Of a stretch of DNA of 64,000 bases, positions 24,811 through 40,384 are shown piece by piece. Within the stretch, counting starts at the first letter, position 1; each line of letters begins with the position of its first letter. The stretch is from assembly GCF_947494875.1 (NCBI RefSeq), contig NZ_CANLWM010000006.1:248001-312000 (forward strand). The letters run 5' to 3'. A program made the translations under genes and the position numbers. Below the pieces are notes generated by a model, which was given only the letters and a program-made list of their open reading frames with translations, searched no databases and was not told the DNA's origin. The stretch is from an uncultured Williamsia sp. GTDB lineage: Bacteria > Actinomycetota > Actinomycetes > Mycobacteriales > Mycobacteriaceae.

Positions 24811-26345
24811 CTACCAAGCTTCCGATTCGACCGAGGTCGGCGTTCGACGACCTGGGATTCAAGGGCTCAGTTGATGCGCTCGTTGCGCAGACGCAGCAGC
24901 TATATCTTGCTGACGGTGTTCCCTGGGTAGTCGGTTACTCGGGGGGAAAAGACTCGACCGCGACGCTTCAGCTCGTCTGGCTCGCACTCGAAGGCCTCGA
25001 CCCTGAGAAGCGCACAAAGCCCGTACACGTCATAAGCACCGACACCCTGGTGGAGAACCCAGTCGTCGCCGCGTGGGTGACCCATTCGCTGGATGTCATG
25101 GCTGAAGCGGCGGCTGAGAGGTCGCTCCCGCTGACACCCCATCGTCTGACCCCGGCAGTCACTGACACCTTTTGGGTGAACCTCATTGGTCGCGGTTATC
25201 CGGCACCTCGGCCGAAGTTTCGCTGGTGCACGGAGCGCCTGAAGATCAAACCCTCCAACACGTTCATCCGTCAGATGGTGCGGTCTCACGGCGAGGCGAT
25301 ACTTGTTCTCGGCACGCGGAAGGCAGAGAGTTCGGGTCGCCATGCGCGGATGGCAGCGCTGCAGTCACGACGTATGCGCGACCTCTTGAGTCCTAATGAC
25401 TCACTTCCCAATGCACTGGTTTATTCACCAGTGGAGGATTGGTCGAACGATGATGTGTGGACCTTCTTGATGCAGTCACCCAACCCGTGGGGCTACTCCA
25501 ACAAGGAACTTCTCACCATGTATCAGGGCGCATCTGCTGACGGCGAGTGCCCGTTGGTCGTGGACTCCACCACACCGAGTTGTGGTGACAGCCGATTCGG
25601 CTGCTGGACATGCACTCTCGTCGAGCAGGACAAATCCATGGCCGCAATGATACAGAACGACGAAGAGAAGGAATGGATGCTTCCACTTCTTGATCTTCGT
25701 AACGCGCTGGACGTCGCCGACGATCGGCACTTGCGCGACTTCCGCCGAATGAACGGCTCTGTGCAGCTCTTCCACGACCGACCAATCCCTGGCCCTTACA
25801 AGCAGAGTGCGCGCGAGGACTGGCTGAAGCGACTATTGGAGGCCCAAGCATGGATTCGGAAGAACGGTCCAGACTACGTAAACAAGCTGGATCTCATCAC
25901 CCTCGCTGAGCTCGAAGAAATTCGTCGGATATGGGTGGTGGACAAGCACGAGTTCGAGGACAGTCTTCCGGGGATCTACCAATCCGCTATGGGTGAGGTC
26001 TACCCGGGCGGCAAGCTCGACGAGCACCTGCCTCTTGGCGCTGACATGATCGATGCGCTGCGTCAGGTAGCCGGGGACGACCGGCTCCATTTCGAACTTG
26101 TCCGAGAGCTGCTGGATATCGAGCAGCGGCATCGTGCGCAAGTACGCCGGGCTGGCTTGTTCGAGTCGCTCGAGAAAGCGATGCGACGGGGCTTCTACGA
26201 CGACGAGGCCGACGCCACACAGCGTGCGCAGCACCGTAAGGCGGCGACGGAGCGCGCTAACTCCGATGTGTCAGAACATGATCAGCCCAATGTGATCGAC
26301 GTAGCTGATGGCTACGTTCGGCCAGTTCCTGAGGCGGGCCTGTGA
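24807..26345 (+). CDS. dndC: DndC sulfurtransferase (PAPS-reductase-like, Fe-S)
   Basis: A 512-residue protein starting with GTG in the GTGA overlap. Residues 45-50 are the PP-loop SGGKDS of ATP pyrophosphatases, which activates the DNA phosphate. Cys141 (FRWCTERLKIKP), Cys248, Cys259, Cys266 and Cys269 (SCGDSRFGCWTC) are the expected iron-sulfur and sulfur-carrying residues. It accepts sulfur from DndA and works with DndD and DndE on DNA. The length is normal for the family. The ~45-residue C-terminal tail is charged and may be disordered. Confidence 0.93.
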   Translation: MTTKLPIRPRSAFDDLGFKGSVDALVAQTQQLYLADGVPWVVGYSGGKDSTATLQLVWLALEGLDPEKRTKPVHVISTDTLVENPVVAAWVTHSLDVMAEAAAERSLPLTPHRLTPAVTDTFWVNLIGRGYPAPRPKFRWCTERLKIKPSNTFIRQMVRSHGEAILVLGTRKAESSGRHARMAALQSRRMRDLLSPNDSLPNALVYSPVEDWSNDDVWTFLMQSPNPWGYSNKELLTMYQGASADGECPLVVDSTTPSCGDSRFGCWTCTLVEQDKSMAAMIQNDEEKEWMLPLLDLRNALDVADDRHLRDFRRMNGSVQLFHDRPIPGPYKQSAREDWLKRLLEAQAWIRKNGPDYVNKLDLITLAELEEIRRIWVVDKHEFEDSLPGIYQSAMGEVYPGGKLDEHLPLGADMIDALRQVAGDDRLHFELVRELLDIEQRHRAQVRRAGLFESLEKAMRRGFYDDEADATQRAQHRKAATERANSDVSEHDQPNVIDVADGYVRPVPEAGL

Positions 26346-28312
26346 TTCTCAACGAGCTTGTCCTGCACAACGTCGGTACTTTCGCTGGACGCCAAGCCAT
26401 CGATTTGACGCCTCCGTCTGCTGCCAAGCCGATCGTGCTTGTAGGTGGGCTGAATGGAGCGGGAAAGACAACAATTCTCGAGGCTATTCAGCTGGCGCTC
26501 TACGGGTCTCTTGCGCATCAAGCGGGCCGGCGGGCTGGTAGCTACGAGAAGTATATCCGCGGTTTGATTCACCGCGGTGTGCCGGCCAGCGAGGGTGCCG
26601 CTGTCGAATTGACGTTTACGGCCCATCAAGAGGGGCAAGAGCATACTTACTGGATTCGGCGTAGTTGGAAGTCGGAGTCCTTTCGCGAAATCCTGCTGGT
26701 GTCGGTGGACGGACGTCACCACCCATCTTTGGCATCGACTTGGAACGAACATGTCGAGACGTTTCTCCCGCGTGGAATAACAGGGCTCTTTTTCTTCGAC
26801 GGCGAGCAAATCGAAGCTCTGGCAGACCTAGACAGGTCGCGTCAGGTACTCGCTTCGGCTCTAGCAGCGCTCCTCGGCTTGGATCTCGTGGAGCGTTTAG
26901 CGACTGACCTGTCGGTTCTCAAGCGTCGTCATCGTGGCGAACACGTTCCGGAGGGCCTGCGTCAAGAGGTCGAAGAAAAAATGCAGGCGGTCACCCTGAG
27001 CCGGCAGTCGGAAGAGACCGCAGCCCAGGCCGAGCGTGATCGGCATTCCGATCTCGAACGAGCGAAGAAGCTATTCCATGAAGCGACTGAGGCTTACCGC
27101 GCGGCGGGTGGTGAGTTGCTCGAGCAACGCGAAAGTGCCGAAGCTAAATCCGCAATGGTGCGGGCAAGTTTGACTCAGTGCGAGGACGATATTCGCCACG
27201 AGTTATCAGAAGTTTCGCCGCTTCTGCAGCTTGACGAACTAATGCTCCAACTGGCCAACCAGGCGCGAGACGAGGAGGTGGCGCGGCAGAACGCCGCCCT
27301 AATTCACGAGCTGGCTTCCCGCGACGACGCTGTGGTGCAGGAGTTGCAGGGTGCGGATGTCAACTCGAAAGCCATCGCAACCATACGAGAGTATTTCGAG
27401 GCGGACAGGCTTCGGCGAGAGGCTTCGGCCAGCATCAGCGAGGTTGGGGACCTAGTCAGCTACGCCGTCGTCGATGGGCTGCGCAGCGGGTCGATTCCTG
27501 AAGCAAGGAGGCGTCTGCAGCTTGCGATAGACCGTCGGTCGGCCTTGAAGACCGATCTCGACCAGGCCGAGCGGGTACTGGTCGCGATACCTGACCCTGA
27601 AGCGTTGGCTCCACTCCTCCGGGTGCGCGAGGCGACCAGAGACGGCCTTCGGAAAGCTGAAGCTGCCGCTGACCTTGCCACCGGAGTAGCCGGCATTGCG
27701 CGATCCGAAAGGATTAAGCGTGCTGAAGCCTACGAAGCGGCCCTCGACAAGGCGGCGCACGCAAATTTCGCCGCGGACGACGATCGGCGTCTAGTCGACC
27801 ACGTCGATCGCGTCCGGCAGACCCTCGAAGGACTGCGGGTGGCGGCGACTACTCGCCACCTCGAGAGGATCTCGAGCCTGGTTCTCGAAGCCCTTGGAAT
27901 GCTCCTCAGGAAGCAGCAGCTCGTGACCGAGGTGCGGATTGATCCATACGACTACACGGTCTCGCTGACCGGCGCTGACGGCCACGCGCTTCCAGCGAAG
28001 GACCTGTCAGCAGGCGAACGCCAGCTATTGGCTGTCGCGCTTCTCTGGGGGTTGGCGCGCGCCTCCGGACAGCCCCTTCCAGTCGTCATCGACACACCGC
28101 TAGGGCGACTCGATTCATCGCATCGCGGTCACCTCATGGACCGGTACTTTCCGCATGCGAGTCATCAGGTCGTCCTGTTGTCGACTGACACCGAGATTGA
28201 CGAGGACGCCTACCGGCGGATCGCGCCCAAGGTCGGGCGTAGCTACCACCTCAAGTTCGATGGCGACAGAAATGCCACGACCGTTCGCGACGGATACTTT
28301 TGGGAGCAATGA
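26342..28312 (+). CDS. dndD: DndD SMC-like ATPase
   Basis: A 656-residue ATPase. Walker A is at residues 35-44 (GGLNGAGKTT). A long central coiled coil follows. The ABC signature LSAGERQ is at ~555-561 and Walker B (VVIDTPLGRLD) at ~578-588. DndD is thought to nick or remodel DNA and hydrolyse ATP during sulfur insertion. It overlaps dndC and dndE by 4 bases each. A divergent relative with the same domain plan lies in the convergent operon at 30637-32694. Confidence 0.93.
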   Translation: MILNELVLHNVGTFAGRQAIDLTPPSAAKPIVLVGGLNGAGKTTILEAIQLALYGSLAHQAGRRAGSYEKYIRGLIHRGVPASEGAAVELTFTAHQEGQEHTYWIRRSWKSESFREILLVSVDGRHHPSLASTWNEHVETFLPRGITGLFFFDGEQIEALADLDRSRQVLASALAALLGLDLVERLATDLSVLKRRHRGEHVPEGLRQEVEEKMQAVTLSRQSEETAAQAERDRHSDLERAKKLFHEATEAYRAAGGELLEQRESAEAKSAMVRASLTQCEDDIRHELSEVSPLLQLDELMLQLANQARDEEVARQNAALIHELASRDDAVVQELQGADVNSKAIATIREYFEADRLRREASASISEVGDLVSYAVVDGLRSGSIPEARRRLQLAIDRRSALKTDLDQAERVLVAIPDPEALAPLLRVREATRDGLRKAEAAADLATGVAGIARSERIKRAEAYEAALDKAAHANFAADDDRRLVDHVDRVRQTLEGLRVAATTRHLERISSLVLEALGMLLRKQQLVTEVRIDPYDYTVSLTGADGHALPAKDLSAGERQLLAVALLWGLARASGQPLPVVIDTPLGRLDSSHRGHLMDRYFPHASHQVVLLSTDTEIDEDAYRRIAPKVGRSYHLKFDGDRNATTVRDGYFWEQ

Positions 28313-28707
28313 TGCCGATCGAACACGTGCGAGTTAACCAACAGGCGCGAGATCAGTTGATCACGTTGAAGCGTCGTACTGGGGTGCAGCAGTGGAACGT
28401 TCTGTGCCGCTGGGCCCTGTGCAGATCACTCGCCGAACCCGCGCCGCCGCCGATCATTCGACTGACTCTCGACAGCAACGTCGAGATGAGTTGGCGAACC
28501 TTTGGTGGGGACCTTGGTGATGTGCTGTGGTCGCTCGTTCGGTTACGAGCACGAAATGACGGGCTGGAGCTCGATGACGACACGCTGGGTCAACAATTTC
28601 GGCTTCATCTTCATCGCGGTATCGGCTACCTGGTCGGCGACCCACGGGTGTCGGATGTCGCCGGACTAGCAAGTCTGGGGCTGGCTGAACAACCTGCTTC
28701 TGCATGA
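28309..28707 (+). CDS. dndE: DndE, DNA-binding phosphorothioation subunit
   Basis: A 132-residue protein. ATG 28309 overlaps the dndD stop (ATGA); ATG 28312 is an alternative. The N-terminus EHVRVNQQARDQLITLKRRTG and the pattern QWNVLCRWALCRSL fit the small helical DndE, which forms oligomers that bind nicked DNA. The tail HLHRGIGYLVGD also fits. It overlaps the methyltransferase gene by 4 bases. Confidence 0.9.
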   Translation: MMPIEHVRVNQQARDQLITLKRRTGVQQWNVLCRWALCRSLAEPAPPPIIRLTLDSNVEMSWRTFGGDLGDVLWSLVRLRARNDGLELDDDTLGQQFRLHLHRGIGYLVGDPRVSDVAGLASLGLAEQPASA

Positions 28708-30161
28708 CCGAAATGCGTATTGCGCGCCACAAGACTGCGCTCAGCCGCAGCTCGTTGTCACGACCGATCGCTACCGCCATTGCGGACGGTCTAATCGGTC
28801 AGGAAAGCACTCTTTTCGACTACGGCTGCGGTAAAGGTGATGACATTCGCTATCTGGCCGCGATGGGCTACCTTGTCGAAGGCTGGGACCCAACCCACCG
28901 ATCGAATGTCAAACCGCGGCCGGCCGAGGTGGTGAACCTTGGGTTTGTGCTTAATGTGATCGAAGACCCTCTTGAGCGAGTACACGTACTAAATCGAGCA
29001 TGGTCATTAACTGAAAAAGTCCTTGTTGTGGCCGCTCGAATGGTGTGGGACGCTCGCGGCCTTTCGGGCCGACCGATGGGCGACGGGGTGCTCACACGAA
29101 ATGGGACATTTCAGAAATTCTACGAACAAGCTGAACTTGCGCAATGGATTGAGTCGGCTAGTGATGTAAAGCCTTACGCTGCGGCGCCCGGGATATTCTA
29201 CCTCATCCGGGACGAGTCGTTGGCGCAGCGATTCCTCGCGTCGCGGGTGTACTCTTATCGTCCGCGGATCACAATAAGTTCGCAAGACCAATACGCGGCG
29301 AACGAGACAATTTTGCAACCGCTTCTGGAATTCATGAACCATCATGCCAGGCCTCCGAAGTCTCACGAACTAGCGCCCGACGTGGTGCAGGCACTAACTG
29401 AAGCGATCGGCGGAGTTGGAAAAGCGCAGCGGCTCATTCGTCGCGTGACGGACGATGAACATTGGGAACAGGTAGCGCAGCATCGTCGGGCCGAGCTTCT
29501 TACGTACGTTGCATTGTCGAGGTTTGGGCGTCGACCGAAATTCGGTCAGCTTGACAACACCCTCGCTGGTGATCTTCGTGCGACTTTCGGGACGTACCAA
29601 CGTGCGTGCCTCGAGGCGGACCGCTTACTACTCGCGTGTGGCGACCAAGCTTTGCTCCAGGTCAACGCACGTGGTTCCAAGATCGGCAAACAGACACCGA
29701 CCGCGCTCTACGTACATCGATCAGCAATGCCGGAAGTTTCGCCCGTTCTTCAGGTGTACGAGGGCTGCGCGCGCGTGTTGGCAGGGACAGTCCCGAGTGC
29801 GAATATGATTAAGTTATCGGTTGTCGAACCTCAGATTTCCTTCCTGACCTATCCGGAATTTGATCGCGATCCCCATCCACGGTTGCAATCGTCCGTGACG
29901 GTAAACCTTCGTCGCCTGAGCGTCGAGTGGCGTGACTACTCTCGCTCCGAGAATCCGCCGTTGCTGCACCGAAAAGAGGAGTTCCTCGGATCAGATGACC
30001 CACGACGTCCACTCTATTCGCGTCTTACGCGAGCGGAAGTCCAGGCGGGATTGTACCGTACTCCAGAGAAGATAGGAACGACTCTGGGTTGGCTTGACAC
30101 TCTAAAGAATGCTGGGTTGACGCACCGTGGTCACAAATTGGTGCCGTGGGAGCCGGGGTAG
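28704..30161 (+). CDS. DNA phosphorothioation-associated putative methyltransferase
   Basis: A 485-residue protein, fifth gene of the dnd operon. Residues 38-47 (FDYGCGKGDD) form a SAM-binding motif I, followed by GWDPTHRSN and LGFVLNVIED, a Rossmann methyltransferase pattern. The C-terminal ~280 residues belong only to this dnd-linked family, as I recall it (annotated as a dnd-related methyltransferase). The substrate is unknown; RNA or DNA are both possible. The gene ends five bases from a convergent operon. Confidence 0.85.
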   Translation: MTEMRIARHKTALSRSSLSRPIATAIADGLIGQESTLFDYGCGKGDDIRYLAAMGYLVEGWDPTHRSNVKPRPAEVVNLGFVLNVIEDPLERVHVLNRAWSLTEKVLVVAARMVWDARGLSGRPMGDGVLTRNGTFQKFYEQAELAQWIESASDVKPYAAAPGIFYLIRDESLAQRFLASRVYSYRPRITISSQDQYAANETILQPLLEFMNHHARPPKSHELAPDVVQALTEAIGGVGKAQRLIRRVTDDEHWEQVAQHRRAELLTYVALSRFGRRPKFGQLDNTLAGDLRATFGTYQRACLEADRLLLACGDQALLQVNARGSKIGKQTPTALYVHRSAMPEVSPVLQVYEGCARVLAGTVPSANMIKLSVVEPQISFLTYPEFDRDPHPRLQSSVTVNLRRLSVEWRDYSRSENPPLLHRKEEFLGSDDPRRPLYSRLTRAEVQAGLYRTPEKIGTTLGWLDTLKNAGLTHRGHKLVPWEPG

Positions 30162-30188: not shown

Positions 30189-30640
30189 AGGAGTTCATCA
30201 ACACTGGCCGGTGCAGCACCTCCGCCGCTAGCAAGCGCTTCTGAAATCAGGGCATCAACAACTAGATCCGCCGTGAGGTGTCGGACGTTAACCTGCTCCT
30301 GGATCACATCTAGACCGCCGTTCGCGAACTCCTCAAAAATGCGAACACGCTCTTCCAGCCTCGGGGCGTCCAAAATTTCAGGATCATTGCCAACTATATT
30401 CGCTGCAATCATATTTATCAACGCCTCGGAATGGACAGGTGCGGTCATTGTCTCATAACGGATTGGATCACCAGCAGCATCGGAGTAGGACGCCCGGCGG
30501 TTGAAGTGGAAACCTATACCTGCAGCTAAAAGCAGTATGTCGCGAAAGGTGCCGAAGCCGGCATCTTCCTGCAGCTCTTTCATCAGACGTTCGTGCTGTT
30601 GGGGTCTGCGTATGCGAACGTCGGAAGGAACTGAACTCAT
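30167..30640 (-). CDS. dnd system-associated small protein (dnd_assoc_4-like)
   Basis: A 157-residue protein. The pattern VRIRRPQQHERLMKEL, FGTFRDILLLAAGIGFHF and ILDAPRLEERVRIFEEFANG fits the small family that I recall as dnd-associated protein 4. It is found beside phosphorothioation genes and nothing is known of its mechanism. ATG 30640 overlaps the upstream SMC gene's stop. It is the last gene of the five-gene leftward operon 37314 to 30167. Noticeably AT-richer than the flanking chromosome. Confidence 0.7.
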   Translation of the reverse strand: MSSVPSDVRIRRPQQHERLMKELQEDAGFGTFRDILLLAAGIGFHFNRRASYSDAAGDPIRYETMTAPVHSEALINMIAANIVGNDPEILDAPRLEERVRIFEEFANGGLDVIQEQVNVRHLTADLVVDALISEALASGGGAAPASVDELLRGVSWS

Positions 30641-32694
30641 GAGATCTCCATTAGTAATGCGAAGTCATCCTCGGCGGATCGGATATACGGGTAAGAATTT
30701 CCTCTTAGCAAGATGTCTTCTTCACGAGCTTCGGCGAGACTGCTGTGTGCCTCGATGACTCCGAGGTTGCTGACGTAGGGGTCAAGGACATTGACGACCT
30801 TTCCCAAGCCTTGGCTCTTGCTTACCAGGACTACCAACTGAGGCGCAAGCTGCGCTAGCGCCCGGGCGACTGTTTCCTGATAGTTCTCATCCAGAGAGCC
30901 GAACGCCGCATCCATCACAATCGGGTAGGTTCCCGAGTCGGGGCCTGGATCGCCCTCGGCTCGGCTCTCGCTCCGAACCTCGCGCGCGACTTTGGAAACT
31001 GCCGCGACGAAGCTCAGGCTCAAGATTTGGTTCTCTCCCGTGGATTTACCCACTGGTAGGTGCACGCCGTCCACAATCGTGTGCAAGTTGAGCTCAAAGG
31101 AACTGCTTAGCGACGGGACATAGTTCTTGTATGTGATGCCGCGGTATATTGACTTCAACTCCGAGTCTAGACGTAGACGCATCCGCTCTGCACGTATCTC
31201 AAGAATCTCCTCGAGAGCTCGCTTTACATTCTGAACAACGTCGGATCGGGATCGCGCCTTCGCCGCCAAGTGGTCTGTGACCTCGGCATTCTTACGATCT
31301 CTTATCTTCTGCTCAATCTCTTTGCTGATCGTGTCCAAGTCATGAATTACTGCTCCGATTTTTCGCTGCTTCAGCGAATGACGTTCATTTAAATCGATAC
31401 GCTTGGACTCCAGAGCTTGCACGTCCTCAAGCCCTGGTCCTTTGAGTTTTCCGTCGAGTTCCGACAGTGTCTCCTCAAGGTCCGATATCTGGGATCGAAG
31501 ATCACTGATTTGTTTCACGTGACGACCTAAGTTTTCCTCGAAATCTCCCCGCGCAGAGTCCATCGGTTCAATCTGAGCACTGAGCTTCTGCCACGCTGTT
31601 TCAACGGCTTGTAACCCTGCGTGCTGTCGCCAGCTAGTAACTTTCTCCCATGGCCCGGTGCCGACCTGAAGCGTTGTACCGCAAATACACTCACCCTCGA
31701 CCAGGAGTTTGTCGACGAACTCGCGCTTAAGGGGTGTGGGGAGAGCGCCCCTCTCGTATAGCGACGTCGCCATTGCGTTGGTGGCTGCGCCAAGATCCTC
31801 GGTGAAGGCGAGAAACCCGCGCGTAGCGAGGAGATTCGCCTTCTCTCTGCGCGCAGAGTTGAGTGCCAGACGCGATTCACCAAGCGCCTTCGAGGTGGCA
31901 TCACGCTGGAGCTGAATGGGCGCAACTCGTTCGTGCTTCCTAAGAAGATCGGTCACCTTCTCTCTCTCGTCGGCTAGCACGGCGAGATCCGCTTCTAAGA
32001 TCCTATTCTCTTCGTTAAGTGCCGCTTCCCGATCCCGGAGGTCGTCAATAGCGGACTGGATCTCGCTGGCTTTATCGCCGCCATGCTTACGAATATCAGC
32101 CGCAAATCGTTTGTCAACTTTTGGCAAATGCAATATCGCACGCTCTACTTGTTCTAGATCCAGGAGGACCTTTATATCTTGCTGGACCTCGCTATATGCA
32201 CTCTTTTCTACCAGCTTTTCAATTCTTTCACCGTTGAAGAAAAAGAATCTGCTGATGCTTTGTGGGAGGATCGATAGGATGCGTTCCTGGGGGGCTCGGA
32301 CCGTATCAGTTGTACCGTCAAGCCGAGTTTTCCATAATTGAATGTCGGGTGACATTCGGCTCTGATCCTCGCTATCCTTGAACAGAGTCGCTCGCCGCAA
32401 CAGACGAAAGCGCTCACCATCGTGGTCGAAAACGACCTCTACATGAGCTGTGACGGAACTGCCGACGCGGGCGGCTTGCCAGACAGTGTTCGTTACGAAC
32501 TGTTGTTGTTGCTCGACATCGTCCGAGAACTCCCCGTAAAGAGCCCATGTAAACGCGTTCAGAAGGGTCGTTTTTCCTGCGCCGTTCGCGCCAAATATCA
32601 AGTTCACGGGCTTAACAGTGTCTGACTCGAGGTTGAATCTCTGAATGCCTTTGAACTGTCTGAAGTTATTCAACTCGATTGACAAGAGTCTCAC
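30637..32694 (-). CDS. DndD-like SMC ATPase with CxC hinge motif, second copy
   Basis: A 685-residue protein. Walker A is at 35-42 (GANGAGKT), with the same FFFNGERIEKL element seen in DndD (FFFDGEQIEAL). Long coiled coils flank Cys336-x-Cys338 (GECICGTTL), which could form a Rad50-like zinc hook. The ABC signature is at 551-556 (STGENQ) and Walker B at 591-602 (PIVMDAAFGSLD). It overlaps genes on both sides. It probably senses or acts on unmodified DNA with the PLD-helicase, but this is inferred from the operon. It is diverged well beyond an allelic copy of the dndD upstream. Confidence 0.85.
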   Translation of the reverse strand: MRLLSIELNNFRQFKGIQRFNLESDTVKPVNLIFGANGAGKTTLLNAFTWALYGEFSDDVEQQQQFVTNTVWQAARVGSSVTAHVEVVFDHDGERFRLLRRATLFKDSEDQSRMSPDIQLWKTRLDGTTDTVRAPQERILSILPQSISRFFFFNGERIEKLVEKSAYSEVQQDIKVLLDLEQVERAILHLPKVDKRFAADIRKHGGDKASEIQSAIDDLRDREAALNEENRILEADLAVLADEREKVTDLLRKHERVAPIQLQRDATSKALGESRLALNSARREKANLLATRGFLAFTEDLGAATNAMATSLYERGALPTPLKREFVDKLLVEGECICGTTLQVGTGPWEKVTSWRQHAGLQAVETAWQKLSAQIEPMDSARGDFEENLGRHVKQISDLRSQISDLEETLSELDGKLKGPGLEDVQALESKRIDLNERHSLKQRKIGAVIHDLDTISKEIEQKIRDRKNAEVTDHLAAKARSRSDVVQNVKRALEEILEIRAERMRLRLDSELKSIYRGITYKNYVPSLSSSFELNLHTIVDGVHLPVGKSTGENQILSLSFVAAVSKVAREVRSESRAEGDPGPDSGTYPIVMDAAFGSLDENYQETVARALAQLAPQLVVLVSKSQGLGKVVNVLDPYVSNLGVIEAHSSLAEAREEDILLRGNSYPYIRSAEDDFALLMEIS

Positions 32695-32882
32695 GGGAGC
32701 GCCTCCTTGACGGCAGCTAACAGATCTTCAGTGGCTTCATACTTTGCAACGTGAAGTTTGGATCGCTCTATTTCCAAAACTTTCTTGAGAAGCTGCCGCT
32801 CAACTAGAGACAGCTCCTGCACTACCTGCTCCTCAGTGCGATCATCCGTTGACATTGGGTCCTTCATTGTTGATAACCTCAC
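32691..32882 (-). CDS. 63-aa acidic helical protein within the dnd-linked operon
   Basis: GTG 32882 overlaps the helicase stop (GTGA) and the gene's own stop overlaps the SMC gene start, so translation is coupled on both sides. The sequence is helical and charged (TEEQVVQELSLVERQLLKKVLEIERSK), probably one long helix or coiled coil. It could be a small adaptor between the helicase and the ATPase. No family is recognised. Confidence 0.65.
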   Translation of the reverse strand: MRLSTMKDPMSTDDRTEEQVVQELSLVERQLLKKVLEIERSKLHVAKYEATEDLLAAVKEALP

Positions 32883-35026
32883 ATATCCATAAGTTGGTAG
32901 CGCTCTTTTAATGGCCGAAGAACCCGCAATGTCTCCTCGTAGTTTTGCGAAAGTTTTCCAAACTCGTTCGCCCTCGACAGTTCACGAACGAGCAGACGGC
33001 GCTCGAGCTCGAAATTTATGGGTATGCCGTCTCTGGGAACCGCCAAGTAGTCAAAAATCTCCGCTCGCTCCTTTCCGTCGGCTTTCCGAAGCAAACGTCC
33101 GCGACGCTGAATGAACTGTCGGGGATTACTGCTGCTTGCCAACAGGTAGCCAGTACGTGCGTCCGGTATATCGACCCCCTCATCTAGGCAACGCATCGCG
33201 ATCAGCACCTGAAGATCGTCGCCCCGTCCAAATCGTCGTAGTAGTTCTTTTCGTTCGGTTCTTGGTGTGTCGGAGACGTAGACGTGTGCGGTGAGTCGCA
33301 TTTGGTTACCGATCAAGTCGGTGACCTCCCGCAGTTGATTAGGTCCGTCGGGCTCACCTGTGTTTGCTGGCCGTGCACCCTCGGCGCAATAGACAAGTTG
33401 GAACCAGGCGTCGCGGTGAGCTTTCAGATCACCGGCCAACGCGGCCAACTTGCCTGCCGCGTGCCCCAGTACTCCCGCTCGTTTGCGAAGAAGCAGTCCG
33501 AGCATGGATTCGGGATCTGCAGCCCCCAGTTCCTCGCCAGCAGCCATACGTACGGCAATTTTTGCTGAAAGCTCCGCGTAAAGCTCGGTTTCAGCCTCGT
33601 CCAGGGTGATTAGACGCGGATGGTAGTTATACCTACAAAGCGCGCCAATTTGAATCGCTTGATCGAGTCCGAGCTCGAAAAGCACGTTTCCAAAGTATGT
33701 GACTAGCGCGCTTGTCCCCAAATCGTCGTTCCAACGCTCTGGTGTTGCTGAAAGACCCAGTCGATAAGTGGCTTTAGCTGGCAGCATTGACCTCAACGAC
33801 GCCGATCCGAGGTTATGTACCTCATCGGCGATGATGAGAAACGGCTGACCTATGCGGTCCATGATTGCCTGAAACTTATCGCCCGAAAATGACTTGTTGG
33901 TGGCTACCATCGCTACGAGCGGCCGGAGACCGAGCCTCATCTGGGTGAGCTGCTCTTCTACCACGGGCAGCCATGCGCGACTCGCTTCGTATACCGGAAT
34001 TCCGCGTATTCCGAATTCACGCAGTTCTTTCATCCATTGATCGACTAGATGTTGAAGCGGTGCAACAATTAACACCACAAGAGGCTCTTCTCGTTGCTGC
34101 GAAATTGCTTCTGCAAGCTTGCACGCGGCTATCAGCGATGTCTTAGTTTTGCCGGTGCCTGTCGCCATCTTCAAGATTCCGCGACCTTGCTCAGCGAACC
34201 ATGCGTCCACCGCCTTGCGTTGATAGTCGCGGATCCTTAAGGCCTCGGGTATCGCAAAGCGTTCCGGAGAGTCTTCGTCGGAAGCAGGGAATGCTAGAGC
34301 ATCGGCGGTTGCTGGAAGGATGTATTTCCTCTCTTTTCCTAAGTCGATCAATCTATCTCGAGAAACTTCGGGAAAGTCCTCGACAGAGAGCATAGGCGTA
34401 TTGTTTGCCCACAGAGTGTTGAAGTCATGTTCCAAACTAGCCGCGCGTTCCCCGTCGCCGTCGAGCCACCCCCGATACACTTCGATCGACTCAAAATTCG
34501 CCACCAGTCCGCCCGCCGTCTCGTTGCTGCTGCCTGTGAACGCGACCAGGTCCCCTGATGGGTCTCGAAATATGCCAAGCTTTTCATGATATATTCCGAT
34601 GCGTCCTTCGTGTCTCACGAACGCGAGCTTGATATCAAGCTTCTCATCGGCAATTAGTCGACCAAGAAGCCCGAGCCCATCCAATACCGAAGCCGCATCT
34701 TCCAAATTCAAGACCCGCTCTGTGGCCCGTGTCAAGATGTCGCGGAGGCTGTAACCGCGCTCGATGTCGAGAACATCGTCTTGCGTCAAATTCGGCGAAG
34801 CAATGAGACGCATTTGACCGCCGTTTCTCGCGAATTTCTCGATCCCTCGTGAGTAGAGAGCCAAACTAGTAGAAGTAAAATATCCCACCGCTCGCGAGTA
34901 AGTGGAAGCAACTCGGAAAGCGGGCAAATAGAAGTCCTTGACAACGTCCCCGCGGTTGCTCCGATAGCGAGCATTTAGTGGAAGGTCACGAAGCCCCGGC
35001 TTCGTCTTCTTCTCCGTTGAGGTCAT
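32879..35026 (-). CDS. PLD-like nuclease - DEAD/SNF2-type helicase (dnd-linked restriction protein)
   Basis: A 715-residue protein. The N-terminal ~210 residues resemble a phospholipase-D nuclease: YHEKLG at 146-151 gives a single HxK, followed by FTGSSNETAGG, as in type III-like restriction helicases. The helicase follows: Q-motif region RIRDYQRKAV, Walker A GTGKT (290-294), DEVH (401-404), LSATPERW, and motif VI QFIQRRGRLLRK near the end. I recall a dnd-linked family of this architecture annotated as a phosphorothioation-system restriction enzyme. It probably acts on non-phosphorothioated invader DNA. Coupled to both neighbours. Confidence 0.85.
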   Translation of the reverse strand: MTSTEKKTKPGLRDLPLNARYRSNRGDVVKDFYLPAFRVASTYSRAVGYFTSTSLALYSRGIEKFARNGGQMRLIASPNLTQDDVLDIERGYSLRDILTRATERVLNLEDAASVLDGLGLLGRLIADEKLDIKLAFVRHEGRIGIYHEKLGIFRDPSGDLVAFTGSSNETAGGLVANFESIEVYRGWLDGDGERAASLEHDFNTLWANNTPMLSVEDFPEVSRDRLIDLGKERKYILPATADALAFPASDEDSPERFAIPEALRIRDYQRKAVDAWFAEQGRGILKMATGTGKTKTSLIAACKLAEAISQQREEPLVVLIVAPLQHLVDQWMKELREFGIRGIPVYEASRAWLPVVEEQLTQMRLGLRPLVAMVATNKSFSGDKFQAIMDRIGQPFLIIADEVHNLGSASLRSMLPAKATYRLGLSATPERWNDDLGTSALVTYFGNVLFELGLDQAIQIGALCRYNYHPRLITLDEAETELYAELSAKIAVRMAAGEELGAADPESMLGLLLRKRAGVLGHAAGKLAALAGDLKAHRDAWFQLVYCAEGARPANTGEPDGPNQLREVTDLIGNQMRLTAHVYVSDTPRTERKELLRRFGRGDDLQVLIAMRCLDEGVDIPDARTGYLLASSSNPRQFIQRRGRLLRKADGKERAEIFDYLAVPRDGIPINFELERRLLVRELSRANEFGKLSQNYEETLRVLRPLKERYQLMDM

Positions 35027-37314
35027 AGGAGATCCATAATCTCGTGCACATCAACATCGACATCAACTCTTGCAGCTTCCGTTGCGGACACGAAAAGATG
35101 GCGCGCATCCGTCAGAAGTTTCGCGATATCTTCGTCCCCACGCTCCCGGTAAGCCCCGATAATGCTATCCATGGGAGAGTCGTCGGGAAGTTCAACAGCC
35201 CGCGCTAGAGATAATCGAGCGCTTTCGATATCGCCAAAAGGTTCGGCGTCGATAAGGGTGAGGGCATCTTTAAGGGGCTCGCCGACCAGACTTCGGGCGA
35301 GTCTGAAACCGAATCTGCCTGACTCCTCAAGAACGAGAAATGCCTCTGCGTTAAGTTTCGCATCCGCGGCCAGGAGGAACCGCCGGATGGTTCCGAAGCT
35401 GGGTTGTATTCCTGTCCATGTAACTGTTTGCGGTCCGAGTGGAGATTCAAGTTGAACCATCTCTCCCGCGTTCAAACTAAGCAATGTCGCCACCGCCCTG
35501 GGAGCGATTGAGCCGCTGCCACGAAGATGGTCCGCGGTGACTTGAACCCGATACGCCCATCCATCATTTACTCTGAAAAGTCGACGTGTATTTGTGGGCG
35601 TTTTACGAGCGATCCGATCTGAGTCGCCAAACTGGACAAATCCATTTTTAATACTGAATGGAGGTGCGGACGCGTAGGCGACCACGCTATTAGCACTGAC
35701 GCTATAGTTACGTGTGATAGATTCAACAATTTCCGACAAACGGATGTGGCCGCCTCCCGCGACAACTTGTTCCGTAATCAGGGACCGGATCCCCCCGTAA
35801 GCGTCCAAGCCCCACTCTTTCAGCGCCCATTTGTCGCGATCAACCCTCTCCAACCGCGGATCTAGGCCCATCGCGTTACGCAGAGCACCGAGTGTTCGTT
35901 CATGCGTGAACTCTTCGATTATTTCCTGAGCACTGAGTGGTCGTCCGCTAAGTGATAGGATCGCAGCAGCATAGTCACCTACGGACGACGTGCGCGTTAG
36001 GGCATAATCTTTGTAGACGACATACCCGCATTCCGACAGCCAGCGTGCACTTATTGCCGCTCTGCGAGACGCGTGTTGTGTTTCAATTATTGAAATCGTC
36101 TTCAAGTCGACGACTCCGTATGGATCTGAGAGTTCCTGCAAATGTGTGTTGGTAAGTTCGCGCACCGCATTAATGGTGGGAACGACACACCAGTCGCCCT
36201 CGATCTCGTACGCGTCGTCAAGTCGGTCAAAGAACCTCCAAGCTGGCTGACCTAATTGGGGAACGGTGTATCCAAGTGCAGGAAGGAGATCAACAATCTC
36301 GTCAAGCGGACGAATTGTCGACGTCATTCCCCGCACCGTCTTCGCTACAGCGGCCAGTGGAGCAGATTCTGATACTGCACTAGTCAGTGTGCCGCGAGCT
36401 TTTGCCTCAATCTGACGAATGCGCTCTCGGGTAACGCCGTGCTGGTGACCGATATCATCGAGGGTCATAGGTTTGTCGGCGAACAGACGCGCCGCGAGCA
36501 CCTCTATTGCCCGCGAGTCGAGACGCAGTAATGTCTGGTCAATAAGAGAAGCAGCGTCTGCGACAGGTTTGTCGGCAACAACTTCTTTGGCAGTAAGCTG
36601 CTCGATTCGCTTTCTTGCGTCCACGATTCGGGCCGGTGTTCCAAGAGGAAACGGATCACCGAGAAGTTCCCTCTCAGGCAATCCGATAGTCGCAAACCAA
36701 TGTGAAGCATAGATTAGGTCATCAATGAGCGATTTTGCCCAATCTGCAATAAAATTCGCATCATCTAGGCGTCGGCGATCGGTCGGCGCGTTTCTTGGGA
36801 CGGTATCGCTAACCGCCGATGTTGGCTGACGCGTGGAAATTTCGGCCAGCACGCGAAACATCGATTCCGCAGTTCCGACGCCTATTTGGCGCCAGTCCAG
36901 CAACTCTTCTATAGAAATTCCTAGAATTTGCTCAGTAGTAACTGCTTCGAATCGAATAAAGGCATTGAGGGCCCGAGCTGGGAGGTTAAGCTTGAGGAGC
37001 TGGACGTCCGGGGAGAGCCCAGGAAAAATCTGGCCGACAGTCCACCGTGGAAGACGCTCCATCGCTAGTTCGACGACGGTTGCCATGCGTTGCTGCCGCG
37101 TGGCCGGGTCGACAGAGTCCAGCCGCTCGCTTGACCAGGAAATCTCGTTGGGTTGGTCAGCCTCTATGACGCCGGGAAGCCATGGGAACGCGTCCCCCCA
37201 CGTTTGAGGATGAGTGTCCTCGTTTCGTTCAGCTGCCAGGGACATAGATCGGTTCTTCAACTTCCTGTAGTGCAGGTATGGCGCGAACCGCGGGGGAACG
37301 GAGTGCTCCCGCAA
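35023..37314 (-). CDS. RNAP-alpha-CTD-like / sigma-region-4-like regulator of the dnd-linked operon
   Basis: A 763-residue protein, first gene of the operon; GTG or ATG near 37314 or 37245 could start it. Residues ~110-160 (NLPARALNAFIRFEAVTTEQ, then a G-V-G turn) strongly resemble the RNA polymerase alpha C-terminal domain. Residues 265-310 form a sigma-70 region-4-type HTH (MTLDDIGHQHGVTRERIRQI). Residues ~400-560 include repeated winged-helix-like units (RPLSAQEIIEEF, HIRLSEIVESI). The tail is predicted beta-rich. It may bind DNA like a transcription factor or recognise phosphorothioate sites; it may be one of the Pbe-type proteins, which I cannot match by name. Confidence 0.7.
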   Translation of the reverse strand: MREHSVPPRFAPYLHYRKLKNRSMSLAAERNEDTHPQTWGDAFPWLPGVIEADQPNEISWSSERLDSVDPATRQQRMATVVELAMERLPRWTVGQIFPGLSPDVQLLKLNLPARALNAFIRFEAVTTEQILGISIEELLDWRQIGVGTAESMFRVLAEISTRQPTSAVSDTVPRNAPTDRRRLDDANFIADWAKSLIDDLIYASHWFATIGLPERELLGDPFPLGTPARIVDARKRIEQLTAKEVVADKPVADAASLIDQTLLRLDSRAIEVLAARLFADKPMTLDDIGHQHGVTRERIRQIEAKARGTLTSAVSESAPLAAVAKTVRGMTSTIRPLDEIVDLLPALGYTVPQLGQPAWRFFDRLDDAYEIEGDWCVVPTINAVRELTNTHLQELSDPYGVVDLKTISIIETQHASRRAAISARWLSECGYVVYKDYALTRTSSVGDYAAAILSLSGRPLSAQEIIEEFTHERTLGALRNAMGLDPRLERVDRDKWALKEWGLDAYGGIRSLITEQVVAGGGHIRLSEIVESITRNYSVSANSVVAYASAPPFSIKNGFVQFGDSDRIARKTPTNTRRLFRVNDGWAYRVQVTADHLRGSGSIAPRAVATLLSLNAGEMVQLESPLGPQTVTWTGIQPSFGTIRRFLLAADAKLNAEAFLVLEESGRFGFRLARSLVGEPLKDALTLIDAEPFGDIESARLSLARAVELPDDSPMDSIIGAYRERGDEDIAKLLTDARHLFVSATEAARVDVDVDVHEIMDLL

Positions 37315-37470
37315 CTGGTCAACCGAGAGGTATCAACGGCTGGGCTCGGGTTGGCGCCGGGTTAAACGATTGGTTCGGCTCACTCGGTTTGGTTGCGCAC
37401 ACGCGGTTGACTCTACGGCTACACCGGAAGCGTGTATCTGAAACGGACTCTCGCGGTACGGTCTAGACGG

Positions 37471-38199
37471 ATGGCAACTAACTCTTCTCAGCCAGCGCAC
37501 GCGCCAGAGCGGTTCACGGCACTGAACTCGGACCTGGCGCCGGCAGGGCCCGGAATCTACGCGTGGTATGCGCACGTGCCACTAGGCGTGAATGATTGGC
37601 GTCCGAACTTGGTCGATGGATCGGATGCGGCGGCTTCGGCGTTCCACCGAGGCCTATCGAAGTACGCCAGTGCTCATCGTCCGCCTCCGATCGAGCTAGT
37701 CGGTTCTGGAACCTACGATCTGAGGTGGGAGGGAACGCTTCACTTAGGTGCGGTCACAGATGCTCGCGCCGGTGAAGCGTCGTCGCTGCTGGGAGCGCGG
37801 ATGGACTTCGTCATGGAGGACCCCGATTCTAGGCAGCGCCTGCTCAGCCTGATGCGCGCAGCTCCGCCAATTTTCGCTACACCCCTTTACATTGGGGTTG
37901 CCACCAACCTTCGCGCGCGTCTTGGTGAGCACAAGCGTGACTACGAGTCGGCAAAGGCCGCAATTCGTTCTGACCCGACTCGGAGTGCGCACATGCAATT
38001 CGAGGGAAAGTCGTTTGGTGAGAGATTGGCGGGTTGTGGGCTGACACTCGATTCTGTGGAGGTCTGGGTACTGCAAGCCCAGCTTCACGAGCCTGATCGG
38101 TCAGCGGAAACTCGTGCAGCAATGCCTGCGCGCGTGGTTGCACAGGCTGCCGAGTGGATCCTGCAACGAGTATTTCAACCTGCGCTCGGAAGGAAGTAA
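37471..38199 (+). CDS. GIY-YIG domain protein next to the second DGQHR gene
   Basis: A 242-residue protein. ATG 37471 is taken because the 13 codons upstream look non-coding. GIY is at residues 28-30 (PGIYAWY) and YIG at 140-142 (LYIGVATNLRARLGEH, with the catalytic-type Arg). A late Glu228 in AAEWILQRVFQPALGRK matches the family's E...P-x-L/N-x-K end. A ~110-residue insertion separates GIY and YIG, which is unusual. All expected catalytic positions are present, so a nicking or cleaving nuclease is likely. It is one base before the DGQHR gene and divergent from the sigma-like gene. Confidence 0.75.
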   Translation: MATNSSQPAHAPERFTALNSDLAPAGPGIYAWYAHVPLGVNDWRPNLVDGSDAAASAFHRGLSKYASAHRPPPIELVGSGTYDLRWEGTLHLGAVTDARAGEASSLLGARMDFVMEDPDSRQRLLSLMRAAPPIFATPLYIGVATNLRARLGEHKRDYESAKAAIRSDPTRSAHMQFEGKSFGERLAGCGLTLDSVEVWVLQAQLHEPDRSAETRAAMPARVVAQAAEWILQRVFQPALGRK

Positions 38200-38200
38200 C

Positions 38201-40384
38201 GTGGGTATCGGAAGCGCTAAGAATACTAGATCGTTTCAAGAGCGAGTTCAGGGCACTTTAGGCACCTTCGCAACGCCGGCCGGTCGAGTTGATTACCTTA
38301 TGACCAAGGCTCGGCTGGGGGAGGACGCTACTGATCCGGAACGGCGTCTCACTCGACATCTAGTTCCTTTCCGCGAAGTCATTCCTTCGGAGGACCTCGA
38401 CTTTAATCAGCTTTTGCAGAGGGACCTTGACGATCATCGCGTGGCCATAAATCTCGTACCGTATCTACTGAATCCGGCCAAAAATGGTCCCGCATTCTTT
38501 CCCCCAATTCTGGCGATTCTTCTGCCGTTTCAGTATCAGAGGCCATCTTCTTTCCCCGTATTAGACAACGTCGGCTCTGTCACAGATTCAGGTTTAGACT
38601 GGGATGAGAGTGTGGCGGGTGACGCCGTCAAGATGCGTCGGCTTCTCGTTGACGGCTCTCGCGAGGTTAATCCGATCCCGCTGGGAGAGGTTCATTGGAA
38701 CTCCGAGTTTGCTCGCCTGGTCGTTGTCGATGGTCAACATCGCGCCATGGCCTTGTTAGCGGTAGATCGAACGATGCGATCGGCATGGCAAGGGACCCGG
38801 GGGGCTCGATATAAGTACTTTTACGAGTCCACTATTACGGATATGCTCAGCGACGGCGCGTCTGTCAGTGATCTCGAGGTGCCAGTAACTATTGTGTGGT
38901 TCCCCGAGATGTTTGGACCCGGGCATGAACCACATAAAGCGGCGCGAAAACTATTCGTCGATGTCAATAAGGAGGCGCGGACGCCAAGCGAGTCGCGCCT
39001 GATTCTTCTGTCGGACACGCAGCTGTCTAATATCTTTGTTCGGACGGCGCTGTCAACACTTCGGAACGATGCTGGAGGCGGGTTCCTGCCGCTTTATTCA
39101 ATCGAGTACGACAACCCCGATACTAAGACAACCCAGTCCGCACGATGGTCCGCGATGACCAATATTCACGCACTCAAGCTCATGGTCCTAAGGGCAGTAT
39201 TTGGTCCGCCAAAATATATCAATGATATGACGGCACAGATTGGCCGAAGAGAGCCGTTGGATGAAATGGACACATTCATGCGGATGCAGCTCGATGTCGA
39301 GACGCTATTTCCGGCAGTCGTCGATGAGAGCGAAGAGTTCGCGAGAACCTCGCTTGGAAATGCGGATTTCCCGGAATCGGCTGTCGAACCTATGTCGGCC
39401 CGATTTATGGAGACATGGGGTTTCTCCCTGCTAACTTTGCTGAGCGAAATCCACCCCTATCGGGCTCACGCCCAAGCTCTTAGGGTGCTAAAGCAAAATT
39501 GGATCGCCGATGACGCAATCTCGTCGTTGGCATTCGATGCAGTTTTCGGCGGCGTAGGGATGTTCTGGACTCTGCGTGAGGCTGCGACGCACTGGCAAGA
39601 AAACGTCGCAGCTCCTGGACGCTCTTCTACAGCTGAGAAGCCGGATGTCGTGCGAGCGTGGGAGCTTATCGCGGTGCGGCAGACTGAATTTGAGGAGTTG
39701 CGAGCAAAAGAGCTTCTTGGTTCTGCGTCGCGGAAGGACGATGCTGCCCGGGTCTATCAGGCGGTTAATACACACGCGTGCCAGCTTGGACTTGCGCTCT
39801 CGTTTGCAAGCTTATTCTGTGTGGCCCGCGAAGATGGTCTAACTCCCCAGGAGCTAGCCATTCCCCTGGCTTCGACGGTTAATTTCTGGATGAACAGTCG
39901 AACTCACGGAAAGTACGACAGACGATTGGCTCTATCGAAGCGAGCTTCTAATTCACCGAAGTGGCCGCTTAACCTTATCGCGAACATGGATATGCCGAGG
40001 GCAGTACAGTTCAGGTATTTTTGGCTAGAAATTTTCGCGTGTCCGGCTGGGGAGGAACATCTGACTGGTCTCATTCGCCGCGACAAGCTCGAAATTCTGA
40101 GAGACGAGGCACGAAGCGCTTATGTGGCTTATGTTACTCAAGAGAAGCAGAAGGCGTTGCGGACTACACGCCCGGAGCTCAATCTGCAGAATCGAGAGGA
40201 GCTTGCGCGGCGGGAAGCGAATCGTGAGATTCGAGAGGCACTTTTAAAATGGTTTGATTTAGATGAGGAAAAATTGGAGGCGTGGTTTTCGAGTTTGTCT
40301 GCTTCTCAGGAGTCGGTGATCGACCCAGAAAATGAAGTGGATGAGCCTTCTACCTTCGATGAGAATGATGCTTCGGTGGAATAG
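38201..40384 (+). CDS. Large DGQHR-domain protein (second DndB-like protein)
   Basis: A 727-residue protein. GTG 38201 is preceded by GGAAGGA. DGQHR is at ~179-183 (RLVVVDGQHRAMALLAV), with the companion FVDVNKEARTPS that mirrors DndB's FADLNRHA. The protein is almost twice the length of DndB; its C-terminal ~350 residues are helical and charged and have no recognised domain. DGQHR proteins recur around phosphorothioation and other defence genes. Pairing with a GIY-YIG gene suggests a two-component nuclease unit in which this protein recognises DNA or its modification. AT-rich, like the rest of the island. Confidence 0.8.
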   Translation: MGIGSAKNTRSFQERVQGTLGTFATPAGRVDYLMTKARLGEDATDPERRLTRHLVPFREVIPSEDLDFNQLLQRDLDDHRVAINLVPYLLNPAKNGPAFFPPILAILLPFQYQRPSSFPVLDNVGSVTDSGLDWDESVAGDAVKMRRLLVDGSREVNPIPLGEVHWNSEFARLVVVDGQHRAMALLAVDRTMRSAWQGTRGARYKYFYESTITDMLSDGASVSDLEVPVTIVWFPEMFGPGHEPHKAARKLFVDVNKEARTPSESRLILLSDTQLSNIFVRTALSTLRNDAGGGFLPLYSIEYDNPDTKTTQSARWSAMTNIHALKLMVLRAVFGPPKYINDMTAQIGRREPLDEMDTFMRMQLDVETLFPAVVDESEEFARTSLGNADFPESAVEPMSARFMETWGFSLLTLLSEIHPYRAHAQALRVLKQNWIADDAISSLAFDAVFGGVGMFWTLREAATHWQENVAAPGRSSTAEKPDVVRAWELIAVRQTEFEELRAKELLGSASRKDDAARVYQAVNTHACQLGLALSFASLFCVAREDGLTPQELAIPLASTVNFWMNSRTHGKYDRRLALSKRASNSPKWPLNLIANMDMPRAVQFRYFWLEIFACPAGEEHLTGLIRRDKLEILRDEARSAYVAYVTQEKQKALRTTRPELNLQNREELARREANREIREALLKWFDLDEEKLEAWFSSLSASQESVIDPENEVDEPSTFDENDASVE

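What the first reader, a model, noticed from the sequence alone, without database searches (positions are those of the whole stretch)
37471..40384. GIY-YIG nuclease paired with a large second DGQHR protein
The two genes are one base apart, divergent from the dnd-linked operon and share its low GC. DGQHR is the hallmark of DndB, but this protein is about twice as long. The GIY-YIG partner keeps its catalytic residues yet has a ~110-residue insertion. This may be an undescribed phosphorothioate-linked or phosphorothioate-independent defence pair.
Basis: partly seen in the sequence, partly recalled or inferred. Interest (0 to 1): 0.75.

Follow-up and report, generated by a model that had tools for sequence, protein, structure and literature searches.

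The report
Nuclease–DGQHR pair tied to DNA sulfur
Two adjoining bacterial genes, a DNA-cutting enzyme and a large relative of a DNA-sulfur-modification protein, recur side by side beside both known kinds of DNA-sulfur defence machinery, so they are probably an undescribed cutting module of that defence rather than a coincidence.

Summary
A 242-aa GIY-YIG nuclease (37471-38199) and a 727-aa DGQHR protein (38201-40384) abut on the + strand, diverging from a Pbe-type operon and lying downstream of dndBCDE.

The pair is conserved. Of 84 DGQHR loci compared, 54 have the same nuclease family directly upstream; 70 have phosphorothioate (PT) genes in the fetched stretch (39 Dnd, 31 Ssp). Of the other 14 assemblies, 10 have dndC elsewhere. 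The dndC base rate is 3 of 396 genomes. On the DGQHR tree, Dnd- and Ssp-linked members separate with two changes. All 53 aligned nucleases keep the catalytic residues; the long insertion is a family trait. DndF was found in 0 of 40 assemblies searched (control).

Best reading: a two-gene PT-linked restriction or effector module, in which a ParB/sulfiredoxin-type reader gates a separate GIY-YIG nuclease, like DndI, SspE or GmrSD split over two genes. PT linkage is shown; NTPase activity, PT sensing and cutting are inferred. One published section notes GIY-YIG genes at Dnd borders; I found no description of the pair or its Ssp link in the papers searched.

The parts
37471..38199 (+). GIY-YIG nuclease with an inserted domain between the GIY and YIG motifs (242 aa); proposed cutting subunit
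   Evidence: Pfam GIY-YIG E 0.025, below cut-off; catalytic set in 53 of 53; AlphaFold2 pLDDT 89.3; strand with the GIY motif, insertion, strand with YIG, helix with R150, strand 196-202, helix 220-235 with E228; family profile finds UvrC E 0.008, T4 endonuclease II E 0.34, I-TevI E 0.85 in PDB sequences
38201..40384 (+). large DGQHR (DndB-like, ParB/Srx superfamily) protein, 727 aa; N-terminal half DndB-like with QR (73-74), DGQHR (177-181) and FxxxN (252-256), C-terminal half helical and without a known family; proposed reader/NTPase subunit
   Evidence: pLDDT 88.5; 64 of 64 members match TIGR03187 at E 0.001; hhalign to DndB, probability 92.9, E 3.7e-7 over residues 49-336
37315..37470 (.). 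divergent intergenic region between the pair and the Pbe-type operon; likely to hold the pair's promoter (inferred); an imperfect 19-nt tandem repeat at 37370-37407
   Evidence: no sigma-70 consensus promoter found there
23653..24810 (+). canonical DndB (context)
   Evidence: TIGR03233 494.6 bits, over cut-off
24807..26345 (+). DndC, PT sulfurtransferase (context)
   Evidence: TIGR03183 661.6 bits at G000:C6:272885-274189 = window 24885-26189
26342..28312 (+). DndD (context)
   Evidence: TIGR03185 560.8 bits
28300..28707 (+). DndE (context)
28704..30161 (+). DNA phosphorothioation-associated putative methyltransferase (context)
   Evidence: TIGR04096 583.6 bits
30167..30640 (-). PbeD-like / dnd-associated protein 4 (context)
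   Evidence: TIGR04062 65.6 bits, just below its cut-off of 74.25
30637..32694 (-). PbeC-like ABC ATPase (context)
   Evidence: PADLOC PbeC E 8e-244
32879..35026 (-). PbeA-like PLD nuclease-helicase (context)
   Evidence: PADLOC PbeA E 4e-246; TIGR04095 534.2 bits, below its cut-off of 600
35023..37314 (-). 763-aa protein with a sigma-70 region 4 match, first gene of the Pbe-type operon, divergent from the pair (context)

Best explanation
The pair is a two-gene, phosphorothioate-linked restriction (effector) module. The DGQHR protein is a ParB/sulfiredoxin-type NTPase reader that senses whether DNA carries the host's PT marks, or the state of the modification complex. Through its large helical C-terminal half it holds and licenses the co-translated GIY-YIG nuclease, which cuts DNA lacking the marks. 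It would work like DndI, SspE or GmrSD, which combine a DGQ(Q/H)R reader with an HNH nuclease, but here reader and cutter are separate genes and the cutter is a GIY-YIG enzyme with an inserted domain. Shown: adjacency, linkage to both Dnd and Ssp systems, intact catalytic residues, DndB homology of the N-terminal half, correlated divergence of the two proteins. Inferred: NTPase activity, PT sensing, complex formation, cutting, and which DNA (marked or unmarked) is cut.
For: (1) Long GIY-YIG directly upstream of DGQHR in 54 of 84 loci, gap -16 to +22 nt, median 1 (the script looked no further back than 16 nt). (2) PT genes in the fetched stretch in 70 of 84 loci (39 Dnd, 31 Ssp); 10 of the other 14 assemblies have DndC over cut-off; base rate of DndC 3 of 396 genomes of the phylum, own included. 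Of 7 plasmid records with the long DGQHR I opened 6, and 6 of 6 carry Dnd or Ssp genes. (3) In two Asticcacaulis plasmids the order GIY, DGQHR, cysteine desulfurase, SspB, ATP-binding protein, PAPS-reductase-family protein runs on one strand with gaps under 40 nt (SspB by PADLOC). (4) The DGQHR tree needs only 2 changes between Dnd and Ssp, loci without PT genes in the stretch not counted. (5) GIY and DGQHR distances correlate at rho 0.85-0.88 in Dnd loci and 0.81 in Ssp loci, more than DGQHR with DndB, DndC, DndD, DndE or SspD (0.63, 0.69, 0.34, 0.80, 0.48). (6) Catalytic letters unchanged in 53 of 53. (7) DndF in 0 of 40 assemblies that hold a Dnd-clade long DGQHR gene (positive control 2 of 2). 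PbeA (TIGR04095) at 270 bits or more in 17 of 40 by my count, over the family's own cut-off in 4 of 40. So in 23 of 40 neither was found by these two searches. (8) Canonical DndB is in the stretch as well in 34 of 39 Dnd loci, so the long protein does not replace the regulator. (9) DndI, whose reader belongs to the same superfamily, is a PT-sensing ATPase with a nuclease domain (PMC11662687, passages seen).
Against: Nothing biochemical was tested. 13 of 84 DGQHR loci have neither the long GIY nor the GHKL partner (one, L034, starts at a contig edge), so DGQHR can persist alone. In 4 of 84 (L035, L053, L070, L081) neither DndC nor DUF4007/SspB was found in the assembly. Three of the 31 Ssp calls rest on one gene in the stretch (L059 and L063 SspD, L062 a cysteine desulfurase). 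The pair is rare among PT systems: 1 of 39 plasmid records with DndC has the long DGQHR. Profile comparison with DUF262 (the SspE/DndI/GmrSD reader) is weak: probability 3.6 and 42.8. Foldseek gave no usable match. The distance correlations are not corrected for shared ancestry, and the tree is a quick one with several long branches.
Confidence: 0.57

Rival explanations
1. Suicide or back-up effector: the GIY-YIG enzyme is an indiscriminate DNase held inactive by the DGQHR protein and released when the PT system is inhibited by an invader; it does not discriminate marked from unmarked DNA.
For: PMC10853773 (section 17 read) proposes this role for standalone nucleases including URI/GIY-YIG at Dnd borders; the pair sits at the border of the Dnd/Pbe block in the window; abutting genes and correlated divergence fit a toxin with a restrainer.
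Against: DGQHR occurs without the long GIY (13 of 84 with no partner seen, 17 of 84 with a GHKL ATPase instead), unlike a dedicated antitoxin. In two Asticcacaulis plasmids the pair is the 5' part of an apparent ssp operon. The DGQHR tree follows Dnd against Ssp, which suggests reading of the mark or binding of the machinery.
Confidence: 0.22
2. Modification accessory: the pair nicks or marks sites for sulfur insertion or tunes PT level (DGQHR as a second DndB-like regulator, GIY-YIG as a nickase), and is not an effector.
For: DndB regulates PT (PMC4507180, passages seen); DGQHR is on the same strand as the modification genes in 57 of 69 loci counted and looks operonic with ssp genes in some.
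Against: Most PT loci on plasmids lack it (long DGQHR in 1 of 39 DndC records), canonical DndB is present as well in 34 of 39 Dnd loci, and the compact-GIY/GHKL replacement is easier to understand as an effector swap.
Confidence: 0.13
3. Mobile-element nuclease or passenger: a GIY-YIG homing-type endonuclease that mobilises the island, next to a stray DndB paralogue.
For: GIY-YIG enzymes are often homing nucleases (recalled); the region is variable: none of the 7 other genomes of the genus searched carries the DGQHR gene.
Against: The pairing recurs in records titled as actinobacteria, cyanobacteria, proteobacteria and Poribacteria, distances co-vary, and both strong GIY matches in 396 genomes lie next to DGQHR.
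Confidence: 0.04

Closest known systems
DndB (TIGR03233, PF14072)
   Same: N-terminal half homologous (hhalign probability 92.9, E 3.7e-7); DGQHR, QR and FxxxN motifs
   Different: Twice the length, extra helical C-terminal half; below DndB and DGQHR curated cut-offs; coexists with a canonical DndB in 34 of 39 Dnd loci
DndI and SspE (DUF262 + HNH PT-sensing nucleases; PMC11662687, passages)
   Same: ParB-superfamily DGQ(Q/H)R reader coupled to a nuclease and to PT genes
   Different: Reader and nuclease are separate genes; nuclease is GIY-YIG, not HNH; reader is DndB-type, not detectably DUF262
GmrSD type IV restriction (PMC4619093, abstract start and passages)
   Same: ParB/Srx NTPase plus nuclease, known both as one protein and as two separate proteins
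   Different: Cuts glucosylated hydroxymethylcytosine DNA; HNH nuclease
PbeABCD (PMC6459918, passages)
   Same: PT-linked effector operon, present divergently in the window
   Different: No match of either protein to its PADLOC models; PbeA at 270 bits or more in 17 of 40 assemblies with long DGQHR
DndFGH
   Same: Restriction module of Dnd systems
   Different: No match of either protein; DndF in 0 of 40 assemblies with long DGQHR (control); DndG and DndH were not searched for
URI/GIY-YIG genes at Dnd borders (PMC10853773, section 17)
   Same: GIY-YIG gene at the border of a Dnd locus, as here
   Different: That section does not mention pairing with a DGQHR protein, an inserted domain, or Ssp systems

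Membership tests
GIY-YIG nuclease superfamily | catalytic set: two motif tyrosines, Gly of YIG, helix Arg, His/Tyr, metal-binding Glu (list recalled) | tested here: met
   Y30, Y140, G142, R150, H154, E228 unchanged in 53 of 53
GIY-YIG nuclease superfamily | short GIY-YIG spacing (about 10 residues) | tested here: not met
   87-124 residues in 53 members, 109 in the window; 10 in 11 of 11 compact proteins
GIY-YIG nuclease superfamily | Pfam PF01541 over gathering score | tested here: not met
   15.3 against 22.6 bits; 10 of 53 members match at E 0.01
GIY-YIG nuclease superfamily | fold | tested here: inconclusive
   Order of strands and helices in the model fits; family profile finds UvrC, T4 endonuclease II and I-TevI weakly, and also an unrelated ubiquitin ligase; Foldseek unusable
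DGQHR domain / ParB-Srx superfamily | QR pair, DGQHR, FxxxN (as listed in PMC4619093) | tested here: met
   Q73 R74, D177-R181, F252 and N256 invariant in 64 of 64
DndB (TIGR03233) | curated family score | tested here: not met
   no TIGR03233 match for the window protein at E 0.1; PF14072 20.8 against 29.1, TIGR03187 24.9 against 58.85
DndB (TIGR03233) | first gene of dndBCDE | tested here: not met
   that place is taken by canonical DndB at 23653-24810
PT-dependent restriction modules | genetic linkage to PT modification genes | tested here: met
   70 of 84 loci in the stretch, 10 of the other 14 elsewhere in the assembly
PT-dependent restriction modules | restriction that depends on PT state | not testable with these tools
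   needs phage or plasmid assays
DndI/SspE | DUF262 reader fused to HNH nuclease | tested here: not met
   separate genes, GIY-YIG nuclease; no DUF262 match for the window protein; hhalign 3.6 and 42.8
DndFGH / PbeABCD | sequence homology to those proteins | tested here: not met
   no PADLOC match for either protein at E 0.01

The most novel reading that the evidence does not exclude
The long DGQHR protein is a common adaptor of phosphorothioate immunity: a PT-state reader that serves both Dnd and Ssp chemistries and into whose slot different cutters plug (the long GIY-YIG as ancestral partner; a compact GIY-YIG plus GHKL ATPase in actinobacterial Dnd loci; a GmrSD-type gene beside it in at least one cyanobacterium). 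That would make a third class of PT restriction beside DndFGH/SspFGH/Pbe and SspE/DndI.
Probability: 0.33. Interest if true: 0.78.

Novelty: new variant of a known kind. Interest (0 to 1): 0.62.

Why it matters
Many Dnd loci lack DndFGH, and what restricts in them is an open question raised by PMC10853773 (section 17). Here 0 of 40 assemblies had DndF and 23 of 40 had no PbeA match of 270 bits or more, so a conserved nuclease-reader pair is a direct candidate. The same family of pairs in Dnd and Ssp systems would also let one reader family be compared across the two PT chemistries.

Tried and rejected
Fold comparison: Foldseek against PDB and BFVD (nuclease model only) listed no match with E below 0.1 for two confident models, and 142 of the 150 listed rows have an rmsd of 10 Angstrom or more, so I use them for nothing. 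The second aligner was unavailable.

Shared regulation by DndB: the published operator pattern TACG-N10-CGTA at up to 2 mismatches is at chance level in the window (239 against 238 expected), and I saw no palindrome shared by the two intergenic regions. Left undecided.

DUF262 homology of the long DGQHR protein: weak, kept only as a motif-level analogy.

Labels: in my scripts the cyanobacterial helicase/GHKL/PLD trio was named SspF/G/H by position. PADLOC does not confirm those names, so I do not claim SspFGH. The 31 loci counted as Ssp-linked each have an SspB, SspC, SspD or cysteine desulfurase hit. L053, whose only hit was the helicase, was set to 'none' by hand before the count.

Rows dropped: L046 (DGQHR frame in pieces), L087 and L088 (viral collection) were left out of the tree. 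The genome scan kept the best 80 of 106 relatives, 77 loci; 76 of the 77 are in the 84 rows, and the other 8 are the window, L009 and six plasmid loci. L014 could not be searched for DndF or PbeA; L046 was searched there. That the GIY hits lie near DGQHR is no test, since those loci were chosen by DGQHR. The independent checks are 2 strong matches in 396 genomes, both adjacent; a third is marginal, E 9e-5; 3 of 3 plasmid records.

A slip: one search translated from the wrong base; one search is the correct one. The DndF search warned that nothing rang; one search is the positive control I then ran.
Full report
What is there. On the + strand at 37471-38199 lies a 242-aa GIY-YIG protein, and at 38201-40384 a 727-aa DGQHR protein, one base apart. 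Upstream on the same strand are DndB, DndC, DndD, DndE and a PT-associated methyltransferase (23653-30161); on the opposite strand, divergent from the pair, are a PbeD-like, a PbeC-like and a PbeA-like gene and a 763-aa protein with a sigma-70 region 4 match. GC content of the pair is low, like that of the island.

The nuclease. Pfam sees it only below threshold. Aligned with 52 relatives, it keeps Y30, Y140, R150, H154 and E228 in all 53 sequences. Between the two motif tyrosines lie 87-124 residues in the 53 members, against 10 in 11 compact GIY-YIG proteins found in related loci, so the insertion is a feature of the family. AlphaFold2 gives mean pLDDT 89.3, and the order of elements fits a GIY-YIG core with an insertion that forms a helix, two strands and two helices. 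The family profile finds UvrC (E 0.008), T4 endonuclease II and I-TevI (E 0.34, 0.85) among PDB sequences, along with an unrelated ubiquitin ligase domain (E 0.32 and 0.69).

The DGQHR protein. It matches DndB and DGQHR models only below their cut-offs; 64 of 64 family members scanned, window included, match TIGR03187 at E 0.001, and 5 of 64 match TIGR03233. The three motifs that PMC4619093 lists for DGQHR domains (QR, DGQHR, FxxxN; passages seen) are invariant in the 64 sequences. Residues 49-336 are homologous to DndB (hhalign probability 92.9, E 3.7e-7); the C-terminal half is helical and without a known family (pLDDT 88.5). I read it as a DndB paralogue with a large extra domain, not DndB: canonical DndB is also present in the window, and in the stretch in 34 of 39 Dnd loci.

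Conservation of the pair. A scan of one genome per species with the DGQHR alignment found 106 relatives; the best 80 were kept, as 77 loci. The long GIY gene lies directly upstream in 54 of 84, the GIY stop and the first possible DGQHR start being -16 to +22 nt apart, median 1 (the script looked no further back than 16 nt). In 17 of 84, all Dnd loci in records titled as actinobacteria, a GHKL ATPase precedes DGQHR instead, with a compact GIY-YIG ORF before it in 14 of 17; L013 has the long GIY beside DGQHR and a GHKL/compact-GIY module on the other strand. In 13 of 84 neither is found (one at a contig edge). In L083 the gene before DGQHR is a GmrSD-type protein.

Linkage to phosphorothioation. 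Dnd genes lie in the fetched stretch in 39 loci and Ssp genes in 31; three of the 31 rest on a single gene (L059, L062, L063). PADLOC confirms SspB, SspC and SspD in L004 and SspB in L003. For the 14 others, DndC over its cut-off is elsewhere in 10 assemblies; in 4 (L035, L053, L070, L081) neither DndC nor DUF4007/SspB was found. DndC is over cut-off in 3 of 396 genomes of the phylum, the window's own included, and the DGQHR protein is found in 2 of 396. In two Asticcacaulis plasmids GIY, DGQHR, cysteine desulfurase, SspB, an ATP-binding protein and a PAPS-reductase-family protein run on one strand. Conversely the pair is a minority accessory: of 39 plasmid records with DndC, 1 has the long DGQHR.

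Evolution. On a tree of 84 DGQHR proteins the Dnd and Ssp labels need 2 changes, loci without a label not counted (quick tree with several long branches). Pairwise distances of GIY and DGQHR correlate at 0.85-0.88 (Dnd, 18-20 loci) and 0.81 (Ssp, 26 loci), higher than those of DGQHR with DndB, DndC, DndD, DndE or SspD (not corrected for ancestry). In 396 genomes 2 have a strong GIY match and both are beside DGQHR; a third match is marginal (E 9e-5). None of the 7 other genomes of the genus searched has the DGQHR gene.

What else could restrict. DndF was found in 0 of 40 assemblies with the long DGQHR gene (40 of the 41 loci asked for; positive control 2 of 2); DndG and DndH were not searched for. 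PbeA (TIGR04095) reaches 270 bits or more in 17 of 40 by my count, and the family's own cut-off in 4 of 40; 9 of the remaining 23 carry the long GIY pair. There the pair, or its compact-GIY/GHKL counterpart, is the candidate effector; other effector families were not searched for.

Mechanism. DndI, whose reader domain belongs to the same superfamily, is an ATPase stimulated by PT DNA, is held to cut PT-lacking DNA, and harms cells that lack PT (PMC11662687, passages seen). I infer that the DGQHR protein reads PT state and gates the GIY-YIG nuclease. Rivals are a suicide effector (as proposed for Dnd-border nucleases in PMC10853773, section 17 read) and a modification accessory.

Novelty. I searched for phosphorothioate with GIY-YIG and DndB; DGQHR; PbeABCD; SspFGH with SspABCD; GIY-YIG with SspB; DUF4007 with GIY-YIG; phosphorothioate with GHKL; DndB with SspD; phosphorothioate with URI nuclease; and DndB with GIY-YIG. 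In the passages I read no paper describes this pair or its presence in Ssp systems; supplements and most subscription papers were not available. PMC10853773 notes URI/GIY-YIG genes at Dnd borders. PMC8416521 lists, in Rhodococcus qingshengii RL1, DndA-E, the methyltransferase, protein 4, a helicase and a GIY-YIG gene with nearby locus tags, which looks like the window's order (table passage). I rate it a new variant of a known kind.

Noticed in passing
window 35023-37314 (-): 763-aa protein with a sigma-70 region 4 match and a weak RNA polymerase alpha C-terminal-domain match heads the Pbe-type operon; strong relatives precede PbeA in L020, L021 and L038, weaker ones in L018, L027, L028, L031 and L054. 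It is far larger than the 66-aa PbeB of archaea.
   Followed up: partly
L012:7114-9717 and other actinobacterial Dnd loci: A module of a 154-aa protein without a Pfam match, a compact GIY-YIG protein (about 130 aa) and a GHKL ATPase (577 aa, similar to MzaB) sits between dndE and the long DGQHR gene, replacing the long GIY partner.
   Followed up: partly
L089:18072-19975 (-): In Aliivibrio wodanis, between dndBCDE and dptFGH, a 426-aa DGQHR protein (TIGR04172-like, below cut-off) follows at 2 nt a 206-aa gene without a family match that reads to me like a small membrane protein: another DGQHR protein paired with a different partner.
   Followed up: no
L083:7474-9813: In a Laspinema ssp locus a GmrSD-type (DUF262 + DUF1524) gene lies directly upstream of the long DGQHR gene in place of GIY-YIG.
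   Followed up: partly
L004:14355-18912: Some cyanobacterial ssp loci carry a helicase, GHKL ATPase and PLD trio after the DGQHR gene; the names SspF/G/H are not confirmed by PADLOC.
   Followed up: partly
L046:7559-11936: In Mycobacterium parascrofulaceum the long DGQHR gene beside dnd genes is in pieces; described only.
   Followed up: no
window 40771-46466 (+): A PD-(D/E)XK nuclease gene and a UvrD-type helicase-nuclease gene (AddB/AddA-like, name recalled) flank the pair on the right; the helicase is found in the own genome and 1 of 7 others of the genus at E 1e-100, so this flank is variable too.
   Followed up: partly
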